Of a stretch of DNA of 64,000 nucleotides, positions 19,134 through 31,613 are shown one piece after another; the stretch's first letter is position 1, and every line of letters starts with the position of its first letter. A program made the position numbers and the translations under genes. The stretch is from contig NZ_AP027059.1 in NCBI RefSeq assembly GCF_030295325.1, forward strand, positions 992,001 to 1,056,000, written 5' to 3'. This DNA comes from Haliovirga abyssi (GTDB lineage: Bacteria > Fusobacteriota > Fusobacteriia > Fusobacteriales > Haliovirgaceae). The notes beneath the pieces are model-generated. The model was not told the DNA's origin and ran no database searches. It saw nothing but the letters and a program-made list of their open reading frames with translations.

Positions 19134-20915
19134 ATGAAAAAAATTATTTATATATTTATATATTTGTTTATATCTGTTTATAGTTTTTCAATATATGAGG
19201 TTGGAATTACTTATGGTGATAAGCCAAATGAGATAATATTTCCAATCTCATTTACTATGTCCAAAAATAATGACACATATGTATTGGATTATGGTTTGTC
19301 AAAAGTTGTACTCTTTGATAAAAAATTTAAATTTATTAAAAAATTAGACTTAGAAAAAGGAAATATTTCAATAAAAAATATTAAGGATAAAATATATTTA
19401 TTAAATAGTATTAAAAATAGTATTACAGTATACAATTTGAATTTAGAAAAAATATTTTCTTTTGGTTCAAAAGGAATGACCGAAAAAAAGTTTAATCATA
19501 TAGGAGAAATATATATGATTAAAGATAAATTATATATATTTGATGAATATAATTATAGAATTCAAATTTTAGATAAAAATTATAATTATTTATCACAAAT
19601 CTTATTGCCAAAATTTGAATATATATATAAACCTTATTATAGTTTTAATTATGATTTGAGTTATAATAATGGCATTATTTATATATTAGATAAATTTAAT
19701 AAAAAAGTTTATGAGTATGATGTTAAAACTAATAAAAAAATCAAAAAAGAGTTAAATTTAGCAGAGATGGTTTCTCCAGCTAAAATGTTTTTTATAAAGA
19801 AAAGTTTGGTATTATTTGATAAATCAAATAATAATATCTATTTTCCTGGAGTAAAAACAACAAAAAAAGTAAAAGAAGAGGGAAAGAAGAATAATGTTGA
19901 AATATTAAATGGTTCGAAAATTATAGAAAAGGATAATAATATATTTTTTATTAGAGAAAGTAGTATTTATAAATATAATATACAAACAAAAAAAGAAAAA
20001 AAAATAATAGATTTTAAGAAGATTTCAAAAGGAGAATATCTAAAACCTATAGCTTTATCAGAAGATAAAAAGAATAATTTATATGTAGTAGATAATTCGT
20101 TAAATAAAGTATTAATCTATGATAAAAAAGGGAGTTTTGTTAAAGAAATTGAAAATATAGGGATATTTCCAACAGATATAGCAATAGATGATAATAATAA
20201 TAAATATATTTCTATCGCAGGAGAAAATAGAATAAAAAAATATAATTGGAAAAATAGATTAATTTTTACTTATGGAGGATATCAAGAATTTCCTTGTAAT
20301 TATAAATTTTGGTATGACAATTTAGATAAAAAAGAAAAAGAGAAAAAGAAAAAAAGTGAAGATAGATATATTTATAATTTAAAACTAGATTTAGATAGTA
20401 TGGGATACATATATGTTTTAGATTCAAAAGAGATGAATATAAAAAAATATGACAATTTTTTTTCGGAAAAAGATATAATTGGTGGAAGAGAATCTTTATT
20501 AAATATAGTAAGAGGAAAAAAGAGCTTTGATAAATTTGGCTGGGATGAACAGAATTTAGATAATTTAAGTGATATATTTTATAATGATAATAAAATATAT
20601 GTTTTGGATAGATTTTATAAAAGGATAGATATTATAGAAAATGGGAAACTCACTAAATTTATAGAAGATAAATTTTCAGAGAATGGTTTAAATGGAATTT
20701 ATGTAAAAAACGATAAAATTTATGTAACAGATACTTATAATTTTTCAATAAAAATATATGATAATAGCTTAAAAAGGATTAAAGATGTATCTTTATTGCA
20801 ATATGGGATTATGCCAGTTAAAATTTATGGAGATTATATTATAGGGATTTCAACAAAAGAAGCTTTAAAGAAAAACTATAGAATATATAATATAAAGGAG
20901 CTTTTAAATGATTAG
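19134..20915 (+). CDS. Exported NHL-type beta-propeller protein of unknown function
   Basis: A hydrophobic N-terminus of about 20 residues ending in VYSFS is a signal peptide without a lipobox. The remainder (about 590 residues) is made of repeats such as YVLDYGLSKVVLFDKKF, LYVVDNSLNKVLIYDKKG and IYVTDTYNFSIKIYD. This [IL]Yv.D...n.i.iyd pattern is typical of NHL or six-bladed propellers. I use the ATG at 19134, which has AGGTGGA just upstream; the GTG nine bases earlier is part of that site. Its end overlaps mlaF by eight bases, so it is translated together with the lipid-transport genes. It could be a periplasmic accessory of that system; the sequence gives no enzyme motif. Confidence 0.8.
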   Translation: MKKIIYIFIYLFISVYSFSIYEVGITYGDKPNEIIFPISFTMSKNNDTYVLDYGLSKVVLFDKKFKFIKKLDLEKGNISIKNIKDKIYLLNSIKNSITVYNLNLEKIFSFGSKGMTEKKFNHIGEIYMIKDKLYIFDEYNYRIQILDKNYNYLSQILLPKFEYIYKPYYSFNYDLSYNNGIIYILDKFNKKVYEYDVKTNKKIKKELNLAEMVSPAKMFFIKKSLVLFDKSNNNIYFPGVKTTKKVKEEGKKNNVEILNGSKIIEKDNNIFFIRESSIYKYNIQTKKEKKIIDFKKISKGEYLKPIALSEDKKNNLYVVDNSLNKVLIYDKKGSFVKEIENIGIFPTDIAIDDNNNKYISIAGENRIKKYNWKNRLIFTYGGYQEFPCNYKFWYDNLDKKEKEKKKKSEDRYIYNLKLDLDSMGYIYVLDSKEMNIKKYDNFFSEKDIIGGRESLLNIVRGKKSFDKFGWDEQNLDNLSDIFYNDNKIYVLDRFYKRIDIIENGKLTKFIEDKFSENGLNGIYVKNDKIYVTDTYNFSIKIYDNSLKRIKDVSLLQYGIMPVKIYGDYIIGISTKEALKKNYRIYNIKELLND

Positions 20916-21666
20916 TTTGAATTCTGTAAATGTGATTTTGAGTTCTAAAGAGATATTAAAAGATATAACAATGGAAGTAAAAGAAGGAGAAGTTTTTTCT
21001 ATATTAGGGCCTTCTGGATGTGGAAAAAGTGTTTTGCTACAAAATATCATTGGATTAATGAAACCTAACAAAGGTGAAATTATTATTGACAATATAGATA
21101 TAACTAAATGTAATAAAAAAGAATTAAATCAAATAAGAAAAAAATGTGGATTTTTATTTCAGCATTCTGCTTTATTTGATTCAATGACAATAGAAGAAAA
21201 TTTAGCATTTCCAGTTTTACAACATACAAATTTAAGTTATGATATAATAAAAGAAAAAATAAATGAAAAATTAAAAATAGTAGGGTTAAATGGTATAAAT
21301 GATAAAAAGCCATCAGAATTATCAGGAGGGATGCAAAAGAGAGCAGCTCTTGCGAGAAGTATAATATTAGAACCTAAGTATATGTTTTATGATGAGCCAA
21401 CAACTGGATTAGATCCAATAATGTCAAATGTAATAAATGATTTGATAATAGATTTAAATAAACGATTAAATATTACATCAATTGTAGTGACTCATGATAT
21501 GAAATCTGCTTTTAAAGTTTCAGATAGATTAGGGCTTTTATATAACGGAGAAATTATAGTTCAAGGAGACAAAGAGTATATGAAAAAGATAGATGACCCA
21601 TACTTTTTACAATTTATTGAAGGTGAAACAAATGGGCCTATAGATTTAAATTTTATAAAGAGGTGA
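20908..21666 (+). CDS. mlaF: MlaF-type ABC transporter ATP-binding protein
   Basis: MlaF is the ATPase of the MCE phospholipid transport system at the inner membrane. Walker A GPSGCGKSV starts near residue 35, the Q-loop is FQHSALFDSMTIEENLAFP (characteristic of the Mla/Mkl subfamily), the signature is LSGGMQKR, Walker B is YMFYDEPTTGLDP and the H-loop is THD. The 252 residues are standard. It overlaps both neighbours, the propeller gene and mlaD. The permease gene mlaE, normally adjacent, is not in this window. Confidence 0.92.
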   Translation: MISLNSVNVILSSKEILKDITMEVKEGEVFSILGPSGCGKSVLLQNIIGLMKPNKGEIIIDNIDITKCNKKELNQIRKKCGFLFQHSALFDSMTIEENLAFPVLQHTNLSYDIIKEKINEKLKIVGLNGINDKKPSELSGGMQKRAALARSIILEPKYMFYDEPTTGLDPIMSNVINDLIIDLNKRLNITSIVVTHDMKSAFKVSDRLGLLYNGEIIVQGDKEYMKKIDDPYFLQFIEGETNGPIDLNFIKR

Positions 21667-23042
21667 TTAAAATAGTTAAGAAAGAAACTTTTATTGGAAT
21701 TTTTGTATTTATAAGTATTATAGCGTTAATTATTTTTTTATTTAGTTTAGGAAAAATAAGTTTATCTTCAAATTATTATGTTGTAAAAGTAAGTTATAAA
21801 GATGTTAGTAATTTAGAAATAGGTACTCCAGTATTATTAGCAGGAGTGAAAGTTGGAAAAGTAAAAAATATATATTTAGATGATGGAAAAGTTATAGTTG
21901 AATTATATATTAAAAAAAATATCAAAATAAGAAAAGGGGCAAAAGTTGCTATATTTTTAAAAGGTGTAATGGGAGATTTGATAGTTAGTATATATAATCC
22001 ATTAAAAGGGGATGAATATTATAAGAATAAAGATGTTCTTGAAGGGATTGATCCAATATCTTTAAATACATTAGTAGACCAGCTATCAGAAACTATAGTA
22101 ATAATCAATGGTTTAAAGGATACTATTGATAAATTACCAATAAAAGAAACAAAAGAATTGATAATAAATTTAAATAAAGCATCAAAAAGTTTAGATAAAA
22201 CATTATTGGAAAGTAATAAATTAATAAAAGTAAGCAGTTTAATATTAAATGAGAATAAGAAAAATATAAATTTATTATTAAATGAAATGATAAGTTTTAT
22301 GAAAAAATTAGATTCTATTATAGATAGTAATAATAAAAACTTAAAAATGGTATATAACTCTATATTATTAACTATTAATAATACGCAAAAGATATTAGAT
22401 GATAATTCAGATAATATATCAGGAGTTTCTAAAAATTTAAAATTAATAACAGAAGAACTTTTAGAAGTAATAAAAAGTTTATCAAAAGATGACATTAGTA
22501 AAGTATCAAAAGGTATAGTTGGTATAACTGATAATATTGACAAGATAGTAAATAGTATAAACGGTTCATTAAATGAAGAAAATAAAGGTAAAGTTTCTAA
22601 AAGTTTAAAAAATATAGAAGATTTAAGTGATAAATTAAAAAAATATACTAATAATAAAATAAAAAAAGAGATTAATTTAGAATATACAAATAAAAATAAT
22701 AAAATTAATGGGAATATAAAGCTAGAATTAAAAAATGAAAATAGTAATTATTTTGTAGGAGTAAATAGTGGAGAGTTTTCTGATAAATTAAAAAATTTTA
22801 ATTTGACTTTAGGGAAATATTTTGATAGAACTAAAATAGGAATTAAATTTAGAACTGATGGGTATATGGGAACTTTAATAAAATATGAAATAAATAAAAA
22901 ATTATATTTAACTGGAGATTTTAATAATTTGGAGAATAAAGAAGTGATTATAGGCACAGATTTTTACTTTAAAAATAGTAAAATATATTTAAGATACGAA
23001 TTAGAAAACTTCCTTCATATTGGGATAGGATATGAATTTTAA
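21663..23042 (+). CDS. mlaD: MlaD/MCE-domain protein with C-terminal beta-strand domain
   Basis: MCE proteins form hexameric channels that carry lipids between membranes. Residues 10-31 are one inner-membrane helix. The MCE domain follows (about 37-115: NLEIGTPVLLAGVKVGKVKNIYL, VMGDLIVSIY). Residues about 130-330 are helical, needle-like heptad sequence. The last 123 residues (337-459) change character to about ten short alternating strands with the chain ending in GIGYEF, a terminal aromatic as in outer membrane barrel proteins. This fits the trans-envelope MlaD described in diderm Firmicutes (Veillonella). The start is a GTG overlapping the mlaF stop. Confidence 0.85.
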   Translation: MIKIVKKETFIGIFVFISIIALIIFLFSLGKISLSSNYYVVKVSYKDVSNLEIGTPVLLAGVKVGKVKNIYLDDGKVIVELYIKKNIKIRKGAKVAIFLKGVMGDLIVSIYNPLKGDEYYKNKDVLEGIDPISLNTLVDQLSETIVIINGLKDTIDKLPIKETKELIINLNKASKSLDKTLLESNKLIKVSSLILNENKKNINLLLNEMISFMKKLDSIIDSNNKNLKMVYNSILLTINNTQKILDDNSDNISGVSKNLKLITEELLEVIKSLSKDDISKVSKGIVGITDNIDKIVNSINGSLNEENKGKVSKSLKNIEDLSDKLKKYTNNKIKKEINLEYTNKNNKINGNIKLELKNENSNYFVGVNSGEFSDKLKNFNLTLGKYFDRTKIGIKFRTDGYMGTLIKYEINKKLYLTGDFNNLENKEVIIGTDFYFKNSKIYLRYELENFLHIGIGYEF

Positions 23043-23054
23043 GGAGTTATAAAT

Positions 23055-26000
23055 ATGAGAGATTTAATTAAAAAGCATAAGTATGCAATGCTTATGCCGG
23101 CATTTATAATAGTAATATATATATTTACTAATTTATATATTACATTTAAATATCAAATACAAAATACAGTTAAAACATTAACAAAAACATATGCTAATTT
23201 AAATATTAATTTTGTAGATATGAAAATTAAGAATATTAATGAAGTTGAGTTAAAAGATTTTATATTCAAATCAAAAAAAGGTAAAGTGTTATTAAAAGCT
23301 CCACGTGTAAAAATTAATTTTAATATTTTTCCATTTAAATTATCTACAATAAAAGTGATTGATGGGAAAATTAATTTTGAAATGTATAAAAATTCTAAAA
23401 TAAATTTTTTAACTGAATTTGAAAATAAAGAATCAGATTCAAAAGAAAATAAAGAAATACCATTAAATAAAATTATATTTGAAAATTCAAACATTAATTT
23501 TCAAGATTTTAGTAAGAAAAATATTATTAGTAGAGATTTAAAAAATTCAAATGGGATAATATCTTTTTATAATGGGAAAATAAAAATAATAGCTGAAGGG
23601 TCTACAAAATATAAAGAAAAATTAAATTTAAACTTAACATTTGATAAAAAACTAAAATTATTAATAAATATAAAAAATTTACTTATTAATGAAAATGATA
23701 TGCAATATATTGGAGAATTATCAGGAATTAATAGGTATAAAGGAAGAGGGAACATAACATTAACCATAGAAGATAAGAATATAAATGTAAAAGGTGATTT
23801 TCATAATGCATCATTACATTATAATGAAATTGAGGATAAAATATATAATATAAATGGAAAATTTGATTATAAAAATAAGAGATTAAATTTATATACTTTT
23901 GGATATGTAAGTGGTAAGAAATATGATTTAAATTTATTATATTTAAATAGTAAATTAAATATTAAAATAAGTACCAAAAATATAACATATAATGATGTAG
24001 AAAAATTTAAACCAATAAAAAATTTAAATTTAAAAATTAAAGGAAAAATAGAAAAAGCTAATGTAGATTTTAATTATATTAATGATAAACCTTATGCAAC
24101 AATTATAGCGAAATCTAAAAAGATTTTTGTATTTGAAAATGAATTAAAAAATGTAAATCTTAAAATGGTTTATGATGAAAAAAGATTAAATATAAAAAAT
24201 GTAGAGTTTAGTTATTCTAAAGATAATCTTTTTTCTGGTGAATTAGTAGGAAATGCAATTTTAACAGGAAAAAAAATAGATGGGAATATAGAAATAAAAA
24301 AAATTAAAAATATTTATATTGAAAGTTTAACAAATTTAAAAGGAACTTTTATAGGGCAATTAGATAAAAATATTATAGAAATAAATTTGAAAAATAAAGA
24401 ATTCGGGAATATATTTATTAGAAATGATTTTTTAAAAAATAGTATAGAAATTAAAAGCAAAATAATTAAAAAACAAAAATTAAAAATAGAAAATCAGGAG
24501 TTATTAACAAAAGGGAATTTAGATATAAATTATAATTTTAAAAATTTAGAATTTGAAAAAGGAAGTTTTAATTTAGAAGGAGAATATAAAAATATTAGTT
24601 GTTTTGTTAATGGTACTATATTATCAAATATAATGAGGATAAAAAAGTTATATATAAAGAATGAAATTGCATTTGGAACTTTAGATGGGCTATTTAATTT
24701 AAAAACATTTTTTTATAAACTGAATATAAAGAAATCAAGGATTAATGTTAAGGGGTCTAATATAGATTTATATACAGATGGGATATTAACAGGGAAAAAA
24801 GAAAAATTTTATTATAGTGGAACTATTTCAAGTGAAAAAGGAAATTATATAGGAAATTATTCTGGTCTAAAAGGGAAAATTAATTTATCATATAATGGTA
24901 TATTTAAAGGAAACTTCTTAGGAGAGTTGAAAAAAATAGAATATAATAATTTTAATTTTCAAGATTTAAGTATAAATATAAGTTTAAATGATAAAATATT
25001 AAGTTTTAAAAATATTTCAAATAGATTTGTAACTGTTTTGGGTGACTATAACATAGATTCTAAAAATATGGATTTGAAATATGAATTAACAAATTATAAA
25101 TTAAATGATTTGAAGTGGTTAGATGCAGAAGGATTAAATTTATATATAAAAAAAATAAATGGAAAGATTAGTGGAGATTTTACAAATCCTAAAATATATT
25201 TTGATTTAAAAGAATTAAATTTAAAATATAAAAAAAATGATATTTTATTTTCTGGAAATGGAGAAATATCAGATAATATATTAAAATTAAATAAAGCTAA
25301 GATAGATGATAATTTAATTACAGGAAAAATAGATTTAATAAATAAAAATATAGATATACATACAAATATATTTGAGGAAAATTTAAATAAATACTATGAT
25401 TTCAAAATACCAGATTATTTAAAATATAGGATATTAGGAGATATTAATATTTGGGGAAATATTAAAAATTTAAAATCAGTAGGAGAATTAAATATTGATT
25501 CTATTAATTATAAAGATATAAAACTTCCTTCTTTATACTGCAAATTTTCATATAATAAAGGTAATGTTTTTAATTTTTTAAATAGTGGTATATTTGACAT
25601 ATCAAATATAGAAATTAGAAACTATAAAAACAGAAAAACAGCATTAAAAGGTAAAGGAATTGCAAATTTTAAAGATAAAGAGTTTAGTTTGAAAATTCCT
25701 GACCAAAATATAAATATAAATAATTTTGGGATAGATAATATTAACGGACAACTAAATGTTAAATATAACTTTATCTATAAAAATAAAAACATAGAATATG
25801 AATTGATAGCTAATTCAGATATGTTAAATATTTTTGATGCAAAAATAATTAATTTAGAAAATCATATAGAAGGAAATAATAGTGAATTAACTTTAAAAAT
25901 TTTAAGGTTATATTATAATAGCAATAAATTTGAAGCATATGGAAATTTAGATATGAAAAATTTAAAGTATAATTTTAGAATTAACGCCCAAAAGTTAAGA

Positions 26001-27368
26001 TTAAAAACATTTGCATTTTTATTAAAAGATAAATTAAAGTTAATAGATGGAGAAGTTGATGCGAACATATATTTGAATGACGATAGTACATACGGAACTA
26101 TTAAATTGAATAGAGGAAGTTTAATAACAAAGGATGAAAAAATTGTTTTAAAAAATATAAGTGGAATTGGCGTTATAAATAAAAATAAATTTTCTATTTC
26201 AAAATTTTATAGTGATATTAATGGTGGGGATTTAAGTGGAAGTGGAAATTTAGAATTAGATGTACCGGATATTTCAAATATAATGAAATATAAACCAAAA
26301 ATAAATAATTGGGATTTTAATATAAAAGCTGAAAATGTAAAATATTATTTAAATAAAAATATAAATGTACTGTTTGACACAAATCTAAAAATTAAAAATA
26401 AAAATATATTAGGTAGCCTAAAGATAAAATCCGGCGAATTTTCTGGAATAGAATCAGGATTAAAAAAAGATAATAAAAATTATAGTGATATTTTTAAAGG
26501 TTTAGAAGTTGGATTGGATGTTTCTATATCAAAAGAATTTAAAATTCATTTAGCAAATATATCAATATTGGAGGATTTGGAAGCATCTATTTCAGGAAAT
26601 GGGAATTTAACTATTGAAAATAAAAAAATTAATTTTTTAGGAACTATATCAACTGAAGAAGGAGTTATAACTGTAAACAATAATGATTTTAAAATAGAAA
26701 ATGGGTTTATTGTTTTTGATGATCCATATCTGTTTTTTCCAGAGTTGAATCCTTCTATCTCTTTATTAGCTAGTACTAATATAGCAGGGGAAACAATAGA
26801 TGCTCAACTACTTGGAGATCTAAAAAGCATAAAATTAAATTTGAGTTCAAGTTCTAATTTGAATTATTCAGATATAATATCTTTATTAACTTTTCATAAA
26901 AAAATAGGAGAACTTTCTCCTGGAGGGGTTGTAAGGGATGTTTTAGCAAGGCAACTTAATTCAGAAATAGTATTTAATCCATTATCAAAAAGGATTGCTA
27001 AAATATTAGGAATAAGCAAATTCAAATTATACTCAAATATATTAGAAATAAATGATAAGGAGGGAGAACTAAATTTAACAAATGATATTAGATTAGGTGC
27101 AACTTTAGATTTGGGAAATTCTTTATATAAAAATATTTTATTTTGGAATGTAAAAGGAAAATTATCAGATGAAATATCAGGGAAAATTGATTATTATGAT
27201 GTTTGGCTTAATTATAAGATAAATGATCAAAATAATGTATCAGCTGGTATAAAAGAAGAATATAGTGATGACATTGGAAAAAGTGAGCTACATATTGGAT
27301 GGAACTTTAAATATAAAATTTATAAATGGTTAGATATGATAAATATATTTAATATTCCTAAAAAATAA
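23055..27368 (+). CDS. tamB: TamB/AsmA-like inter-membrane bridge protein
   Basis: TamB-type proteins form a long hydrophobic beta-taco groove from inner to outer membrane and help move phospholipids or assemble outer membrane proteins. Residues 12-32 are the inner-membrane anchor. The following 1,100 or so residues are repetitive short beta strands (pattern like NINGKFDYKNKRLNLYTFG). The C-terminal TamB domain (old DUF490) is recognisable from about residue 1190: ISTEEGVITVNNNDFKIENG, FDDPYLFFPELNPSISLLA and the closing strands. The length is 1437 residues. It sits between mlaD and bamA, 12 and 19 bases from its neighbours, fitting a shared job in outer membrane building. Confidence 0.9.
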   Translation: MRDLIKKHKYAMLMPAFIIVIYIFTNLYITFKYQIQNTVKTLTKTYANLNINFVDMKIKNINEVELKDFIFKSKKGKVLLKAPRVKINFNIFPFKLSTIKVIDGKINFEMYKNSKINFLTEFENKESDSKENKEIPLNKIIFENSNINFQDFSKKNIISRDLKNSNGIISFYNGKIKIIAEGSTKYKEKLNLNLTFDKKLKLLINIKNLLINENDMQYIGELSGINRYKGRGNITLTIEDKNINVKGDFHNASLHYNEIEDKIYNINGKFDYKNKRLNLYTFGYVSGKKYDLNLLYLNSKLNIKISTKNITYNDVEKFKPIKNLNLKIKGKIEKANVDFNYINDKPYATIIAKSKKIFVFENELKNVNLKMVYDEKRLNIKNVEFSYSKDNLFSGELVGNAILTGKKIDGNIEIKKIKNIYIESLTNLKGTFIGQLDKNIIEINLKNKEFGNIFIRNDFLKNSIEIKSKIIKKQKLKIENQELLTKGNLDINYNFKNLEFEKGSFNLEGEYKNISCFVNGTILSNIMRIKKLYIKNEIAFGTLDGLFNLKTFFYKLNIKKSRINVKGSNIDLYTDGILTGKKEKFYYSGTISSEKGNYIGNYSGLKGKINLSYNGIFKGNFLGELKKIEYNNFNFQDLSINISLNDKILSFKNISNRFVTVLGDYNIDSKNMDLKYELTNYKLNDLKWLDAEGLNLYIKKINGKISGDFTNPKIYFDLKELNLKYKKNDILFSGNGEISDNILKLNKAKIDDNLITGKIDLINKNIDIHTNIFEENLNKYYDFKIPDYLKYRILGDINIWGNIKNLKSVGELNIDSINYKDIKLPSLYCKFSYNKGNVFNFLNSGIFDISNIEIRNYKNRKTALKGKGIANFKDKEFSLKIPDQNININNFGIDNINGQLNVKYNFIYKNKNIEYELIANSDMLNIFDAKIINLENHIEGNNSELTLKILRLYYNSNKFEAYGNLDMKNLKYNFRINAQKLRLKTFAFLLKDKLKLIDGEVDANIYLNDDSTYGTIKLNRGSLITKDEKIVLKNISGIGVINKNKFSISKFYSDINGGDLSGSGNLELDVPDISNIMKYKPKINNWDFNIKAENVKYYLNKNINVLFDTNLKIKNKNILGSLKIKSGEFSGIESGLKKDNKNYSDIFKGLEVGLDVSISKEFKIHLANISILEDLEASISGNGNLTIENKKINFLGTISTEEGVITVNNNDFKIENGFIVFDDPYLFFPELNPSISLLASTNIAGETIDAQLLGDLKSIKLNLSSSSNLNYSDIISLLTFHKKIGELSPGGVVRDVLARQLNSEIVFNPLSKRIAKILGISKFKLYSNILEINDKEGELNLTNDIRLGATLDLGNSLYKNILFWNVKGKLSDEISGKIDYYDVWLNYKINDQNNVSAGIKEEYSDDIGKSELHIGWNFKYKIYKWLDMINIFNIPKK

Positions 27369-27387: not shown

Positions 27388-29382
27388 TTGAAGAAATTAA
27401 TTTTAATTTTAAATTTATTAATTTTAAGTATTGCATTTGGAGATAGTGGAACATTAATAAAAAATATAGAAATAACATCAAATAAAGAGGTTCCTAATGA
27501 AATAATTTTAAATAGTATGAAGCTAAAAAAAGGGATGGAATTTAAATCCAATGAAATGATAAATGATTATATTTCCATAAAAAATTTAGAATATATAAAA
27601 GATTTAGAAATATATCCTAAAGTGGAAGATAATGGTATAAATTTAATGATAAATGTAGTGGAAGTAGAAGGTGTAAAAAAATTATTAAAAGATAAAGGGA
27701 TTGTGCCAAATTCAGAAAGAGAAAAGATTGATAAAAATATGATTGTTCAGTCAATAGAAGTATTTGGAAATTCTAAAGTAAAGAAAAAAGATATAATAAA
27801 GGAAATACCATTTACAATTGGAAGTTATTTTTCAAAAACAAAAACTTTAGAGGGGAAAAATAAAATATTAGCTATGGGTTATTTCAGAGATGTTAGCCCA
27901 GAAGTATTAAAATATAAAGACGGAATATATATAAAATATAGAGTTTTAGAAAATCCAATATTAAAAGGTGTAAAAATAGAAGGAAATACATTAATTGGTA
28001 CAAAAGAGCTTTTAAGTAAATTCAATACAAAAATTGGAGATATATACAATATTAATATATTGAGAAAAGATATTGATAGTGTTACAAAATCTTATGTTGA
28101 TAAAGGTTATTTTCTTGCTACAGTATATGATGTGGCATTAGACAATGATTTTAATTTAAATATAAAGGTTTCAGAAGGAATATTAAAAGATATAAAATAT
28201 GAAAAAATAATAGAAAAAACAAAAGATAATGCAGTAAGTATGTCAAAAGAATTAAAAACTAAAAAATATATTTTAGATAGAGAAGTTTCACTAGAAAAAG
28301 GGAAGCCAATGGAGATTGCTAAATACAAAGAAAGTGTAAAAAATATATTTAGATTGGGATTTTTTAAAGATATTAAACCTGACTTTATAAGAGATAAAAA
28401 TGATCCAAGATATATAACATTGGTATTGCATTTAAATGAAAATAGAAGTGGTTCTATTCAAGGAGGAGTTTCATATGGAAATTCTATAGGATTAACTGGT
28501 AATATTAGTGTACAAGATAATAATTTTATGGGAAAATCACAAAATTTAAATTTGAAATTTGAGGTATCTTCAAAAAATAAAAAGTTATACGAACTTAGTT
28601 TTTATGATCCTTGGATAAAGGGCAGCAATCATCTATCTTTTGGTTCGGGACTATATAGAACAGAAGTTCAGAATTCGGAAAAATCAGATTTAGATTCAGT
28701 GTATACAAATAAAAATGGAATTAGATTTTCAATAGGAAAAGGATTAACAAATAGAATTAGATTAAGTATAGGTACAAAACTAGAAGAAGTAACAGAATAT
28801 AATGGATCACATGAGGAAATAGATAAATATTCTCTCTTGACATTATACCCTACAATATATTATGATAATAGAGATAATTATTTGGATCCTAAATCAGGAG
28901 AATATGCAAAATTTAGTACTACTTATGGAAAAGTATTTGGAAGAACAAATTATTATTTAATGGATTCAGAGTTTAGAAAATATCATAAATTTTTAACAGA
29001 TAAAAATCATATGGCGTATAGAGTGTTATGGGGATATGCCAGCGAAGAAACACCTAAGTCACAAATATATGCTGTTGGTGGTGGTAACAGCTTAAGAGGA
29101 TATACAAGTTATGATTATGAAGGTAATTTTGAATTAGTATTAAACATAGAAAATAGGTATCAAATTGATGATAATGTTCAAGGTGTCATATTTTATGATG
29201 TAGGAAGAACTTGGACACTATTCAAAGATTTTAGTGGATTAAAAGATATAAAAATGGGATATGGAATAGGTCTTAGAGTAAAAACTCCATTAGGGCCATT
29301 AAGATTTGATTATGGATGGCCGATAAATGATAAAGATAAGAGTGGTGGTAAGTTTTATTTTAATATAGGGCAATTATTTTAG
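27388..29382 (+). CDS. bamA: Outer membrane protein assembly factor BamA (Omp85)
   Basis: BamA inserts beta-barrel proteins into the outer membrane. A signal peptide covers about residues 1-18. POTRA domains follow, e.g. QSIEVFGNSKVKKKDIIKEIPF near 115 and GVKIEGNTLIGTKELLSKFN near 195. The Omp85 barrel begins near 350 with GSIQGGVSYGNSIGLTGNI, the YAVGGGNSLRGY loop (family VRGY/F motif) is near 555, and the chain ends FNIGQLF with the terminal Phe. At 664 residues it has fewer POTRAs or a shorter barrel than E. coli BamA. Start TTG at good distance from GGAGG. It is followed by skp and lpxD as in many diderms. Confidence 0.95.
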   Translation: MKKLILILNLLILSIAFGDSGTLIKNIEITSNKEVPNEIILNSMKLKKGMEFKSNEMINDYISIKNLEYIKDLEIYPKVEDNGINLMINVVEVEGVKKLLKDKGIVPNSEREKIDKNMIVQSIEVFGNSKVKKKDIIKEIPFTIGSYFSKTKTLEGKNKILAMGYFRDVSPEVLKYKDGIYIKYRVLENPILKGVKIEGNTLIGTKELLSKFNTKIGDIYNINILRKDIDSVTKSYVDKGYFLATVYDVALDNDFNLNIKVSEGILKDIKYEKIIEKTKDNAVSMSKELKTKKYILDREVSLEKGKPMEIAKYKESVKNIFRLGFFKDIKPDFIRDKNDPRYITLVLHLNENRSGSIQGGVSYGNSIGLTGNISVQDNNFMGKSQNLNLKFEVSSKNKKLYELSFYDPWIKGSNHLSFGSGLYRTEVQNSEKSDLDSVYTNKNGIRFSIGKGLTNRIRLSIGTKLEEVTEYNGSHEEIDKYSLLTLYPTIYYDNRDNYLDPKSGEYAKFSTTYGKVFGRTNYYLMDSEFRKYHKFLTDKNHMAYRVLWGYASEETPKSQIYAVGGGNSLRGYTSYDYEGNFELVLNIENRYQIDDNVQGVIFYDVGRTWTLFKDFSGLKDIKMGYGIGLRVKTPLGPLRFDYGWPINDKDKSGGKFYFNIGQLF

Positions 29383-30932: not shown

Positions 30933-31613
30933 GTGAAAAAAAAATATTTTATTTTAATAATGTTTTTAGTTATATCGATAGTTGCTTTAAGTAAACCAGC
31001 AAGTAAAGGGTTTACGGGGTTAATTGATTTTCCAACTGCATATAATTTAAGAATAAGCAATTATTCAGTAACTGGGTTAATAGATCATCTTGAGGGAAAC
31101 AGTAAATTTGGCATTATGTTAGAAGGTGGATTTATTCCTCAAATTGAAGCGGGAATAAAATTATCAAGTGAAGACAAATTAATAAATCAAAAATTATTAA
31201 AAGCTAATTTTAAATTTCAATTTGTACAAGAAGCAGATAATCCTGCAATGGCAATAGGGTTTGTAGAAGATGAAGATGTGGTTTATGGTTATTTAGTTGC
31301 GTCAAAATCGATAAGAAAATTATTAAATAAAAAAATATTTTTAGATACTTCAGTAGGATTAAAATATAATGAAAATTCAGAAGCAAGTTTTTTTGTAGGG
31401 TTAGGATTTCCAATCTTTCAAAAGATAAAACTATTATCAGAGGTATATTCATATAATAGTGAAAATAAATTGGGAGAAAAAGAAAAAAAAATCAGTTATA
31501 ATATAGGTGGAGAATTTTATACAACTTCAAATGTTTCTACAAAAGTTTTTTGGAGAGAAATTGATGATAGTGTTGGAATTTCAATAAGTTATACAGGAAT
31601 ATATGACAGATAA
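30933..31613 (+). CDS. Exported YjbH-like outer membrane protein, function unknown
   Basis: A signal peptide (about 1-20) is followed by GFTGLIDFPTAYNL, which resembles the start of YjbH/GfcD-type outer membrane proteins. The rest is alternating beta strands (FGIMLEGGFIPQIEAGIKL, ASFFVGLGFPIF) and suggests a small barrel of 8-12 strands. It starts with GTG two bases after lpxD, behind GGAGG inside the lpxD end. The position suggests an outer membrane role; no enzyme motif is visible and the YjbH link rests on one short motif. Confidence 0.7.
   Translation: MKKKYFILIMFLVISIVALSKPASKGFTGLIDFPTAYNLRISNYSVTGLIDHLEGNSKFGIMLEGGFIPQIEAGIKLSSEDKLINQKLLKANFKFQFVQEADNPAMAIGFVEDEDVVYGYLVASKSIRKLLNKKIFLDTSVGLKYNENSEASFFVGLGFPIFQKIKLLSEVYSYNSENKLGEKEKKISYNIGGEFYTTSNVSTKVFWREIDDSVGISISYTGIYDR

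What the first reader, a model, noticed from the sequence alone, without database searches (positions are those of the whole stretch)
22669..23042. MlaD homologue ending in an outer-membrane-type beta domain
After the membrane helix, MCE domain and long helical needle, the final 123 residues switch to about ten alternating strands ending in Phe, like a barrel signal for BamA. Such a protein could span the whole envelope and move lipids without MlaA/MlaC. A similar MlaD was described in Veillonella; if this window is from Fusobacteriota, this extends that architecture to another diderm lineage.
Basis: partly seen in the sequence, partly recalled or inferred. Interest (0 to 1): 0.65.

Follow-up and report, generated by a model that had tools for sequence, protein, structure and literature searches.

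The report
Envelope-spanning MlaD lipid transporter in Fusobacteriota
[quoted passage not shown] it resembles the protein described in Veillonella, and the two large, well-known fusobacterial families appear to have lost it, probably independently.

Summary
The 459-residue protein (21663-23042) has a membrane helix, an MCE/MlaD domain (PF02470, 1e-14), about 195 helical residues and a ten-strand C-terminal domain. AlphaFold2 folds that domain at pLDDT 86; its best solved matches are ten-stranded transmembrane barrels (OpcA Z 16.0; designed barrel, Foldseek E 2.5e-5), and it ends in a BamA-type signal.

The genome has one MlaD, one MlaE (88 kb away), MlaF beside mlaD, and no detectable MlaA or MlaC; tamB and bamA follow directly. 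This matches the minimal MlaEFD system of Veillonella parvula (Grasekamp 2023), whose authors already call barrel-bearing MlaD widespread in diderm Terrabacteria. It is a new member of a known kind.

The window is Fusobacteriota. Of 98 genomes of the phylum, four, each alone in its family, have MlaD and MlaE; the 94 genomes of the two large families have no credible copy. In 12 of 16 of these that I inspected, rsmG and tamB remain and mlaFD is gone from between them. A four-gene tree implies vertical inheritance with two losses. Membrane insertion, oligomer and lipid transport remain inferred.

The parts
20908..21666 (+). mlaF: ABC ATPase of the lipid transporter, 252 aa
   Evidence: PF00005 6.9e-35; best NCBIfam model is MlaF PRK11831, 4.9e-63, below its curated cut-off; adjacent to mlaD in all four Mla-bearing Fusobacteriota genomes
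21663..23042 (+). mlaD: long barrel-bearing MlaD, 459 aa if it starts at GTG 21663
   Evidence: PF02470 1e-14; the only MCE protein of the genome
21669..21755 (+). N-terminal inner-membrane helix, residues 3-31
   Evidence: helix in the full-length model (low pLDDT) and the hydrophobic sequence itself
21774..21992 (+). MCE/MlaD domain, residues 38-110
   Evidence: Pfam; structural matches to E. coli MlaD at Z about 16
22062..22646 (+). long helical needle, residues 134-328 (195 residues, about 29 nm if one straight helix)
   Evidence: secondary structure of the full-length model (low pLDDT)
22653..23039 (+). C-terminal ten-stranded beta-barrel domain, residues 331-459
   Evidence: AF2 pLDDT 86, pTM 0.74, ten strands; OpcA Z 16.0, designed TMB10 Z 15.2, Pla Z 14.4; Foldseek top hit 8uzl E 2.5e-5; face contrast
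23016..23039 (+). C-terminal BamA-type signal HIGIGYEF
   Evidence: sequence; the other three fusobacterial MlaDs end YIGASYKF, GAGIGYTF, NMGYSVSL
23055..27368 (+). tamB, AsmA-like periplasm-spanning protein, 1437 aa
   Evidence: C-terminal part (26205-27365) matches PF04357 at 2.8e-19; syntenic TamB homologues across the phylum
27388..29382 (+). bamA, 664 aa
   Evidence: Omp85 1.5e-46 and POTRA 9.8e-31; found in 96 of 98 genomes of the phylum

Best explanation
This is the MCE subunit of a minimal MlaE-F-D glycerophospholipid transporter of the Veillonella type. The N-terminal helices and MCE ring sit on an MlaE-MlaF ABC core in the inner membrane. The long helices pack into a tube across the periplasm. 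BamA folds the C-terminal ten-stranded barrel into the outer membrane, which docks the tube there and replaces MlaA (outer-membrane extractor) and MlaC (shuttle). ATP hydrolysis by MlaF most likely draws mislocalised phospholipid from the outer membrane inward, opposing TamB, whose gene is next in the run. The barrel is probably an anchor and not the lipid conduit, because its predicted inner face is crowded with charged side chains. Shown here: gene content, domain order, predicted fold, synteny, absence of detectable MlaA/MlaC. Inferred: oligomer, insertion in the outer membrane, direction and substrate.
For: Single MlaD, single MlaE, MlaF adjacent, no MlaA/MlaC match. Ten-strand C-terminal domain at pLDDT 86 with outer-membrane barrels as best matches. 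Strong two-face alternation. C-terminal signal, and bamA in the same gene run. The domain is conserved by sequence in two other deep lineages (phmmer E 2e-5 to 2e-7 between C-terminal domains alone, for a nominal 1000 sequences). None of the three other MlaD-bearing Fusobacteriota has a detectable MlaA or MlaC. lpxD, a lipid A acyltransferase and kdsB lie downstream. V. parvula, with a similar layout, becomes detergent-sensitive and hypervesiculates without MlaD, tamB loss suppresses this, and fractionation supports MlaD domains in both membranes (PMC10665443).
Against: The alignment behind the models has only four sequences; the full-length model is low confidence (pLDDT 45.8), so the needle is secondary structure only. 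UBA1095's C-terminal domain is not detectably homologous by sequence to the other three. mlaE is unlinked to mlaFD, unlike V. parvula. I found no fusobacterial experiment.
Confidence: 0.8

Rival explanations
1. The C-terminal domain is a soluble, periplasmic lipid-binding barrel (calycin-like) that receives or passes lipids at the tip of the needle, taking over MlaC's role, and is not inserted in the outer membrane.
For: Nitrobindin and fatty-acid-binding proteins appear among structural matches (Z 12.5 and about 8.8). Strand alternation alone cannot tell an inside-out from an outside-in barrel.
Against: Best matches by both programs are transmembrane barrels, and nearly all of Foldseek's top 50 are outer-membrane barrels. 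Model residue 140 (F459) aligns with the last aligned residue of OpcA, Pla and OmpT; a terminal BamA-type signal is present in all four homologues. In V. parvula fractionation supports an outer-membrane location of the equivalent domain (PMC10665443).
Confidence: 0.1
2. The single-chain barrels are not the membrane form: within the MlaD oligomer they open and merge into one larger composite barrel (TolC-like) that lets lipid through.
For: Raised as a possibility by the V. parvula authors because a ring of six barrels is unprecedented and one barrel is too narrow for lipid (PMC10665443). The predicted non-hydrophobic face holds 20 charged residues of 45, so a single barrel would hardly pass lipid.
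Against: The monomer is predicted as a complete ten-strand unit matching closed single-chain barrels over 125-129 residues. No oligomer could be predicted here.
Confidence: 0.1
3. mlaFD arrived in these lineages by recent horizontal transfer from another diderm phylum instead of being ancestral to Fusobacteriota.
For: Only 4 of 98 genomes have it; the 33-genome family branches between the two groups that have it.
Against: Same position between rsmG (directly or with four extra genes) and tamB in four families, two of them outside the window's order. The best matches in 84,980 species are other Fusobacteria, and non-fusobacterial hits are much weaker (2e-59 to 4e-21 against 6e-12 and 2e-8). The fusobacterial MlaDs are only 25-31% identical to the window's, which argues against recent transfer. 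No MlaD or MlaE gene tree was built.
Confidence: 0.08

Closest known systems
Long barrel-bearing MlaD of the Veillonella parvula MlaEFD system (Grasekamp et al. 2023, PMC10665443)
   Same: TM helix, one MCE domain, long helices, ten-strand C-terminal barrel; similar length (419 against 459 residues); no MlaA or MlaC; mlaF immediately before mlaD; tamB downstream.
   Different: mlaE lies about 88 kb away instead of in the operon; no tolC between mlaD and tamB; bamA follows tamB; different phylum.
E. coli MlaD (MlaFEDB with MlaC and MlaA-OmpC)
   Same: TM helix plus one MCE domain, with close structural matches (Z about 16, 1.6-2.0 A for the MCE domain).
   Different: E. coli MlaD has 183 residues and no needle or barrel; the window protein scores 72.5 against a cut-off of 135 for the MlaD equivalog TIGR04430.
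Mycobacterial Mce1A-1F and E. coli PqiB (tunnel-forming MCE proteins)
   Same: MCE ring continued by a helical tube across the periplasm (structures discussed in PMC10665443); Mce1 subunits match the MCE domain.
   Different: PqiB has three MCE rings and no barrel; Mce1 is a heterohexamer whose chains give one strand each to a small barrel, not ten (PMC10665443).
Ten-stranded outer-membrane barrels OpcA, Pla and pOmpT
   Same: Fold and strand number of the C-terminal domain (Z 16.0, 14.4 and 11.6).
   Different: They are not fused to an MCE protein, have longer chains (225-297 residues) and share 6-18% identity: a fold match only.

Membership tests
MlaD/MCE protein family (PF02470) | match to the MCE/MlaD domain over the curated cut-off | tested here: met
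   54.9 bits against 25.1; genome search 59.7 bits
MlaD/MCE protein family (PF02470) | N-terminal transmembrane helix followed by a single MCE domain | tested here: met
   helix 3-31, one MCE stretch 38-110
E. coli-type MlaD equivalog (TIGR04430) | score over the curated cut-off of 135 bits | tested here: not met
   72.5 bits, so not filed as the short proteobacterial MlaD
Long barrel-bearing MlaD (V. parvula type) | extended helical region after the MCE domain | tested here: met
   residues 134-328 predicted helical; model confidence low there
Long barrel-bearing MlaD (V. parvula type) | C-terminal ten-strand membrane-type beta-barrel | tested here: met
   as a prediction: pLDDT 86, ten strands, best matches outer-membrane barrels; not shown experimentally
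Long barrel-bearing MlaD (V. parvula type) | barrel homologous in sequence to the V. parvula barrel | not testable with these tools
   no V. parvula or other Negativicutes sequence could be reached
Minimal MlaEFD system | MlaE and MlaF present, MlaA and MlaC absent | tested here: met
   the MlaA and MlaC models do find E. coli and Caulobacter in the controls
Minimal MlaEFD system | mlaE, mlaF and mlaD in one operon, as in V. parvula | tested here: not met
   mlaFD together, mlaE at C1:924724, about 88 kb away; mlaE also apart from mlaFD in the other three genomes. Linkage is a feature of V. parvula and not a requirement for function
Minimal MlaEFD system | MlaD anchored in both membranes | not testable with these tools
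   needs membrane fractionation or a structure

The most novel reading that the evidence does not exclude
Fusobacteriota inherited a transenvelope MlaEFD system and lost it twice, in the ancestors of its two large families, by loss of mlaFD from an otherwise intact rsmG-tamB-bamA locus, while TamB stayed. The phylum would then be a natural experiment in which related diderms live with and without an Mla phospholipid return path.
Probability: 0.7. Interest if true: 0.55.

Novelty: new member of a known kind. Interest (0 to 1): 0.45.

Why it matters
It places the single-protein membrane bridge in a further diderm phylum, which fits the view that MlaEFD with a long MlaD is the older form and the MlaA/MlaC shuttle a later addition. 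The two large fusobacterial families appear to have lost MlaD and MlaE while keeping TamB and BamA. That makes a question testable by comparison within one phylum: how does the outer membrane stay asymmetric without an Mla return path, and what changed when it was lost.

Tried and rejected
Weak MCE-like hits in four genomes of the 33-genome family (E about 5e-4 to 1e-3, below cut-off): the one opened (L010) is an MreC-like protein, not MlaD. MlaE fragment in G047: set aside as probable contamination, since the contig's other ORF and the fragment itself look Bacteroidota-like (my reading, no tree). Barrel query in the phylum of a deltaproteobacterial hit: weak matches only; the two opened (L028, L029) are glycosyltransferase-like and methyltransferase-like proteins. 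The longer MCE proteins of that deltaproteobacterium show no terminal barrel sequence. A profile of the C-terminal domain against PDB sequences: no match up to E 1, so the barrel assignment rests on fold. Remnants of mlaF or mlaD in 16 Mla-less neighbourhoods: none at E 1e-3. First phylogeny run failed on a thread setting; repeated. Naming the organism from its second contig in the plasmid collection: no match.

Full report
Observation. The finding lies in a 459-residue ORF at 21663-23042. Residues 38-110 match the MlaD/MCE family (PF02470, 1e-14); it is the only MCE protein in the genome. The full-length AlphaFold2 model, built on four sequences, is low in confidence (pLDDT 45.8) but gives the expected order: helix 3-31, MCE strands 38-129, helices 134-328, ten strands 332-457. 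Its MCE part matches E. coli MlaD structures at Z about 16. Folded alone, residues 320-459 reach mean pLDDT 86 and pTM 0.74 with ten strands.

Is the C-terminal domain an outer-membrane barrel? Foldseek's best solved match is a designed ten-strand transmembrane barrel (8uzl, E 2.5e-5), followed mostly by porins and other outer-membrane proteins. VIA-align puts OpcA first (Z 16.0, 2.4 A, 129 residues), then 8uzl (15.2) and Pla (14.4); soluble nitrobindin follows at 12.5. On the predicted strands one face has 35 of 46 aliphatic or aromatic residues and the other 20 of 45 charged, a contrast that none of 20,000 within-strand shuffles reaches. The chain ends HIGIGYEF; relatives end YIGASYKF, GAGIGYTF and NMGYSVSL, all fitting x-Gly-x-x-hydrophobic-x-hydrophobic, the established BamA-type signal.

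Surroundings. The run is rsmG-parA-parB-HDOD-NHL-mlaF-mlaD-tamB-bamA-skp-lpxD (rsmG, parA and parB named from their sequences). The TamB assignment rests on its C-terminal part (PF04357, 2.8e-19); the full-length protein gave no Pfam match, probably a composition-filter effect. mlaE is 88 kb away, after a SpoIVB-type peptidase gene and before an HD-domain gene; the relative G063 has a similar neighbourhood. MlaA and MlaC are not found, although the same models find E. coli and Caulobacter. lpxD, a lipid A acyltransferase and kdsB downstream imply LPS.

Relatives. In 84,980 species the scan returned three Fusobacteria MAGs and two much weaker non-fusobacterial proteins. In 98 genomes of the phylum, MlaD over cut-off occurs in four, each the only held member of its family, and MlaE in the same four plus one probably contaminating fragment. 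All four have mlaF-mlaD-tamB-bamA in a row and lack detectable MlaA and MlaC. The barrels of the window, G063 and G097 are homologous by sequence; that of G001 is not detectably so.

Loss. In 16 genomes sampled from the two large families, tamB-bamA is present in all and no mlaF or mlaD remnant is detectable nearby. In all ten from the 61-genome family rsmG is followed by tamB, in eight directly and in two with HDOD and NHL between. In two of six from the 33-genome family rsmG and parB precede tamB; in the other four rsmG was not found in the stretch. A tree of MnmG, RsmG, TamB and BamA from 20 genomes, rooted on the two genomes of the phylum outside the window's order, places the 33-genome family outside a clade of the window's lineage, G063 and the 61-genome family (support 96, 99, 99). 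With shared position and vertical inheritance, two losses are the simplest account. The outgroup branches are long and the joint outgroup branch itself has support 42.

How it most likely works. By analogy with V. parvula (PMC10665443: mlaD deletion gives detergent sensitivity and hypervesiculation, tamB loss suppresses it, fractionation supports MlaD domains in both membranes), MlaEFD returns phospholipid from the outer membrane and MlaD bridges the membranes in place of MlaA and MlaC. The barrel is best seen as an anchor. Everything beyond sequence and predicted fold is inference.

Novelty. Grasekamp et al. state that barrel-bearing long MlaD is widely distributed in diderm Terrabacteria. 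They sampled three species per order from an April 2020 databank; the main text never names Fusobacteria and the supplement could not be read, so whether the phylum was scored is unknown. My searches of the held papers turned up no report of a fusobacterial MlaD. One review says F. nucleatum has MlaA and a Lol system, which I could not test. The finding is a new member of a known kind; what it adds is the phylum-level pattern of retention and loss.

Organism. Fusobacteriota, in the order of the two large families, sole held genome of its family. Two contigs (2,427,922 and 297,551 bases) suggest Haliovirga abyssi from memory (taxonomy), but this was not confirmed.

Noticed in passing
window 21657-21674: The GTG start of mlaD lies inside a strong ribosome-binding-like sequence (AGAGGTGAT). 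A start at the ATA codon 21672 would give an N-terminus of exactly the length of the G063 homologue (MVKKETFIGIF against MERKELMAGIF), so a rare ATA start is possible.
   Followed up: partly
L017 (G047 C143): An MlaE fragment in one Mla-less genome sits on a contig edge beside a Bacteroidota-like secreted protein: probable contamination of that assembly.
   Followed up: partly
window 23055-27368: Full-length TamB gives no Pfam or NCBIfam match, while its C-terminal 387 residues match PF04357 at 2.8e-19; whole-protein scans may miss TamB in AT-rich genomes.
   Followed up: yes
L044 and L045 (G040, G047): The HDOD and NHL-repeat genes that precede mlaFD in the window persist in two Mla-less genomes directly upstream of tamB, so they are not tied to Mla.
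   Followed up: partly
window 30933-31613: A 226-residue exported, beta-rich-looking protein without a Pfam match follows lpxD; possibly a small outer-membrane protein.
   Followed up: no
PMC11784454: A review says F. nucleatum produces MlaA and a Lol system, although no genome of the two large fusobacterial families held here has a credible MlaD or MlaE; an orphan MlaA would be odd and needs checking.
   Followed up: no
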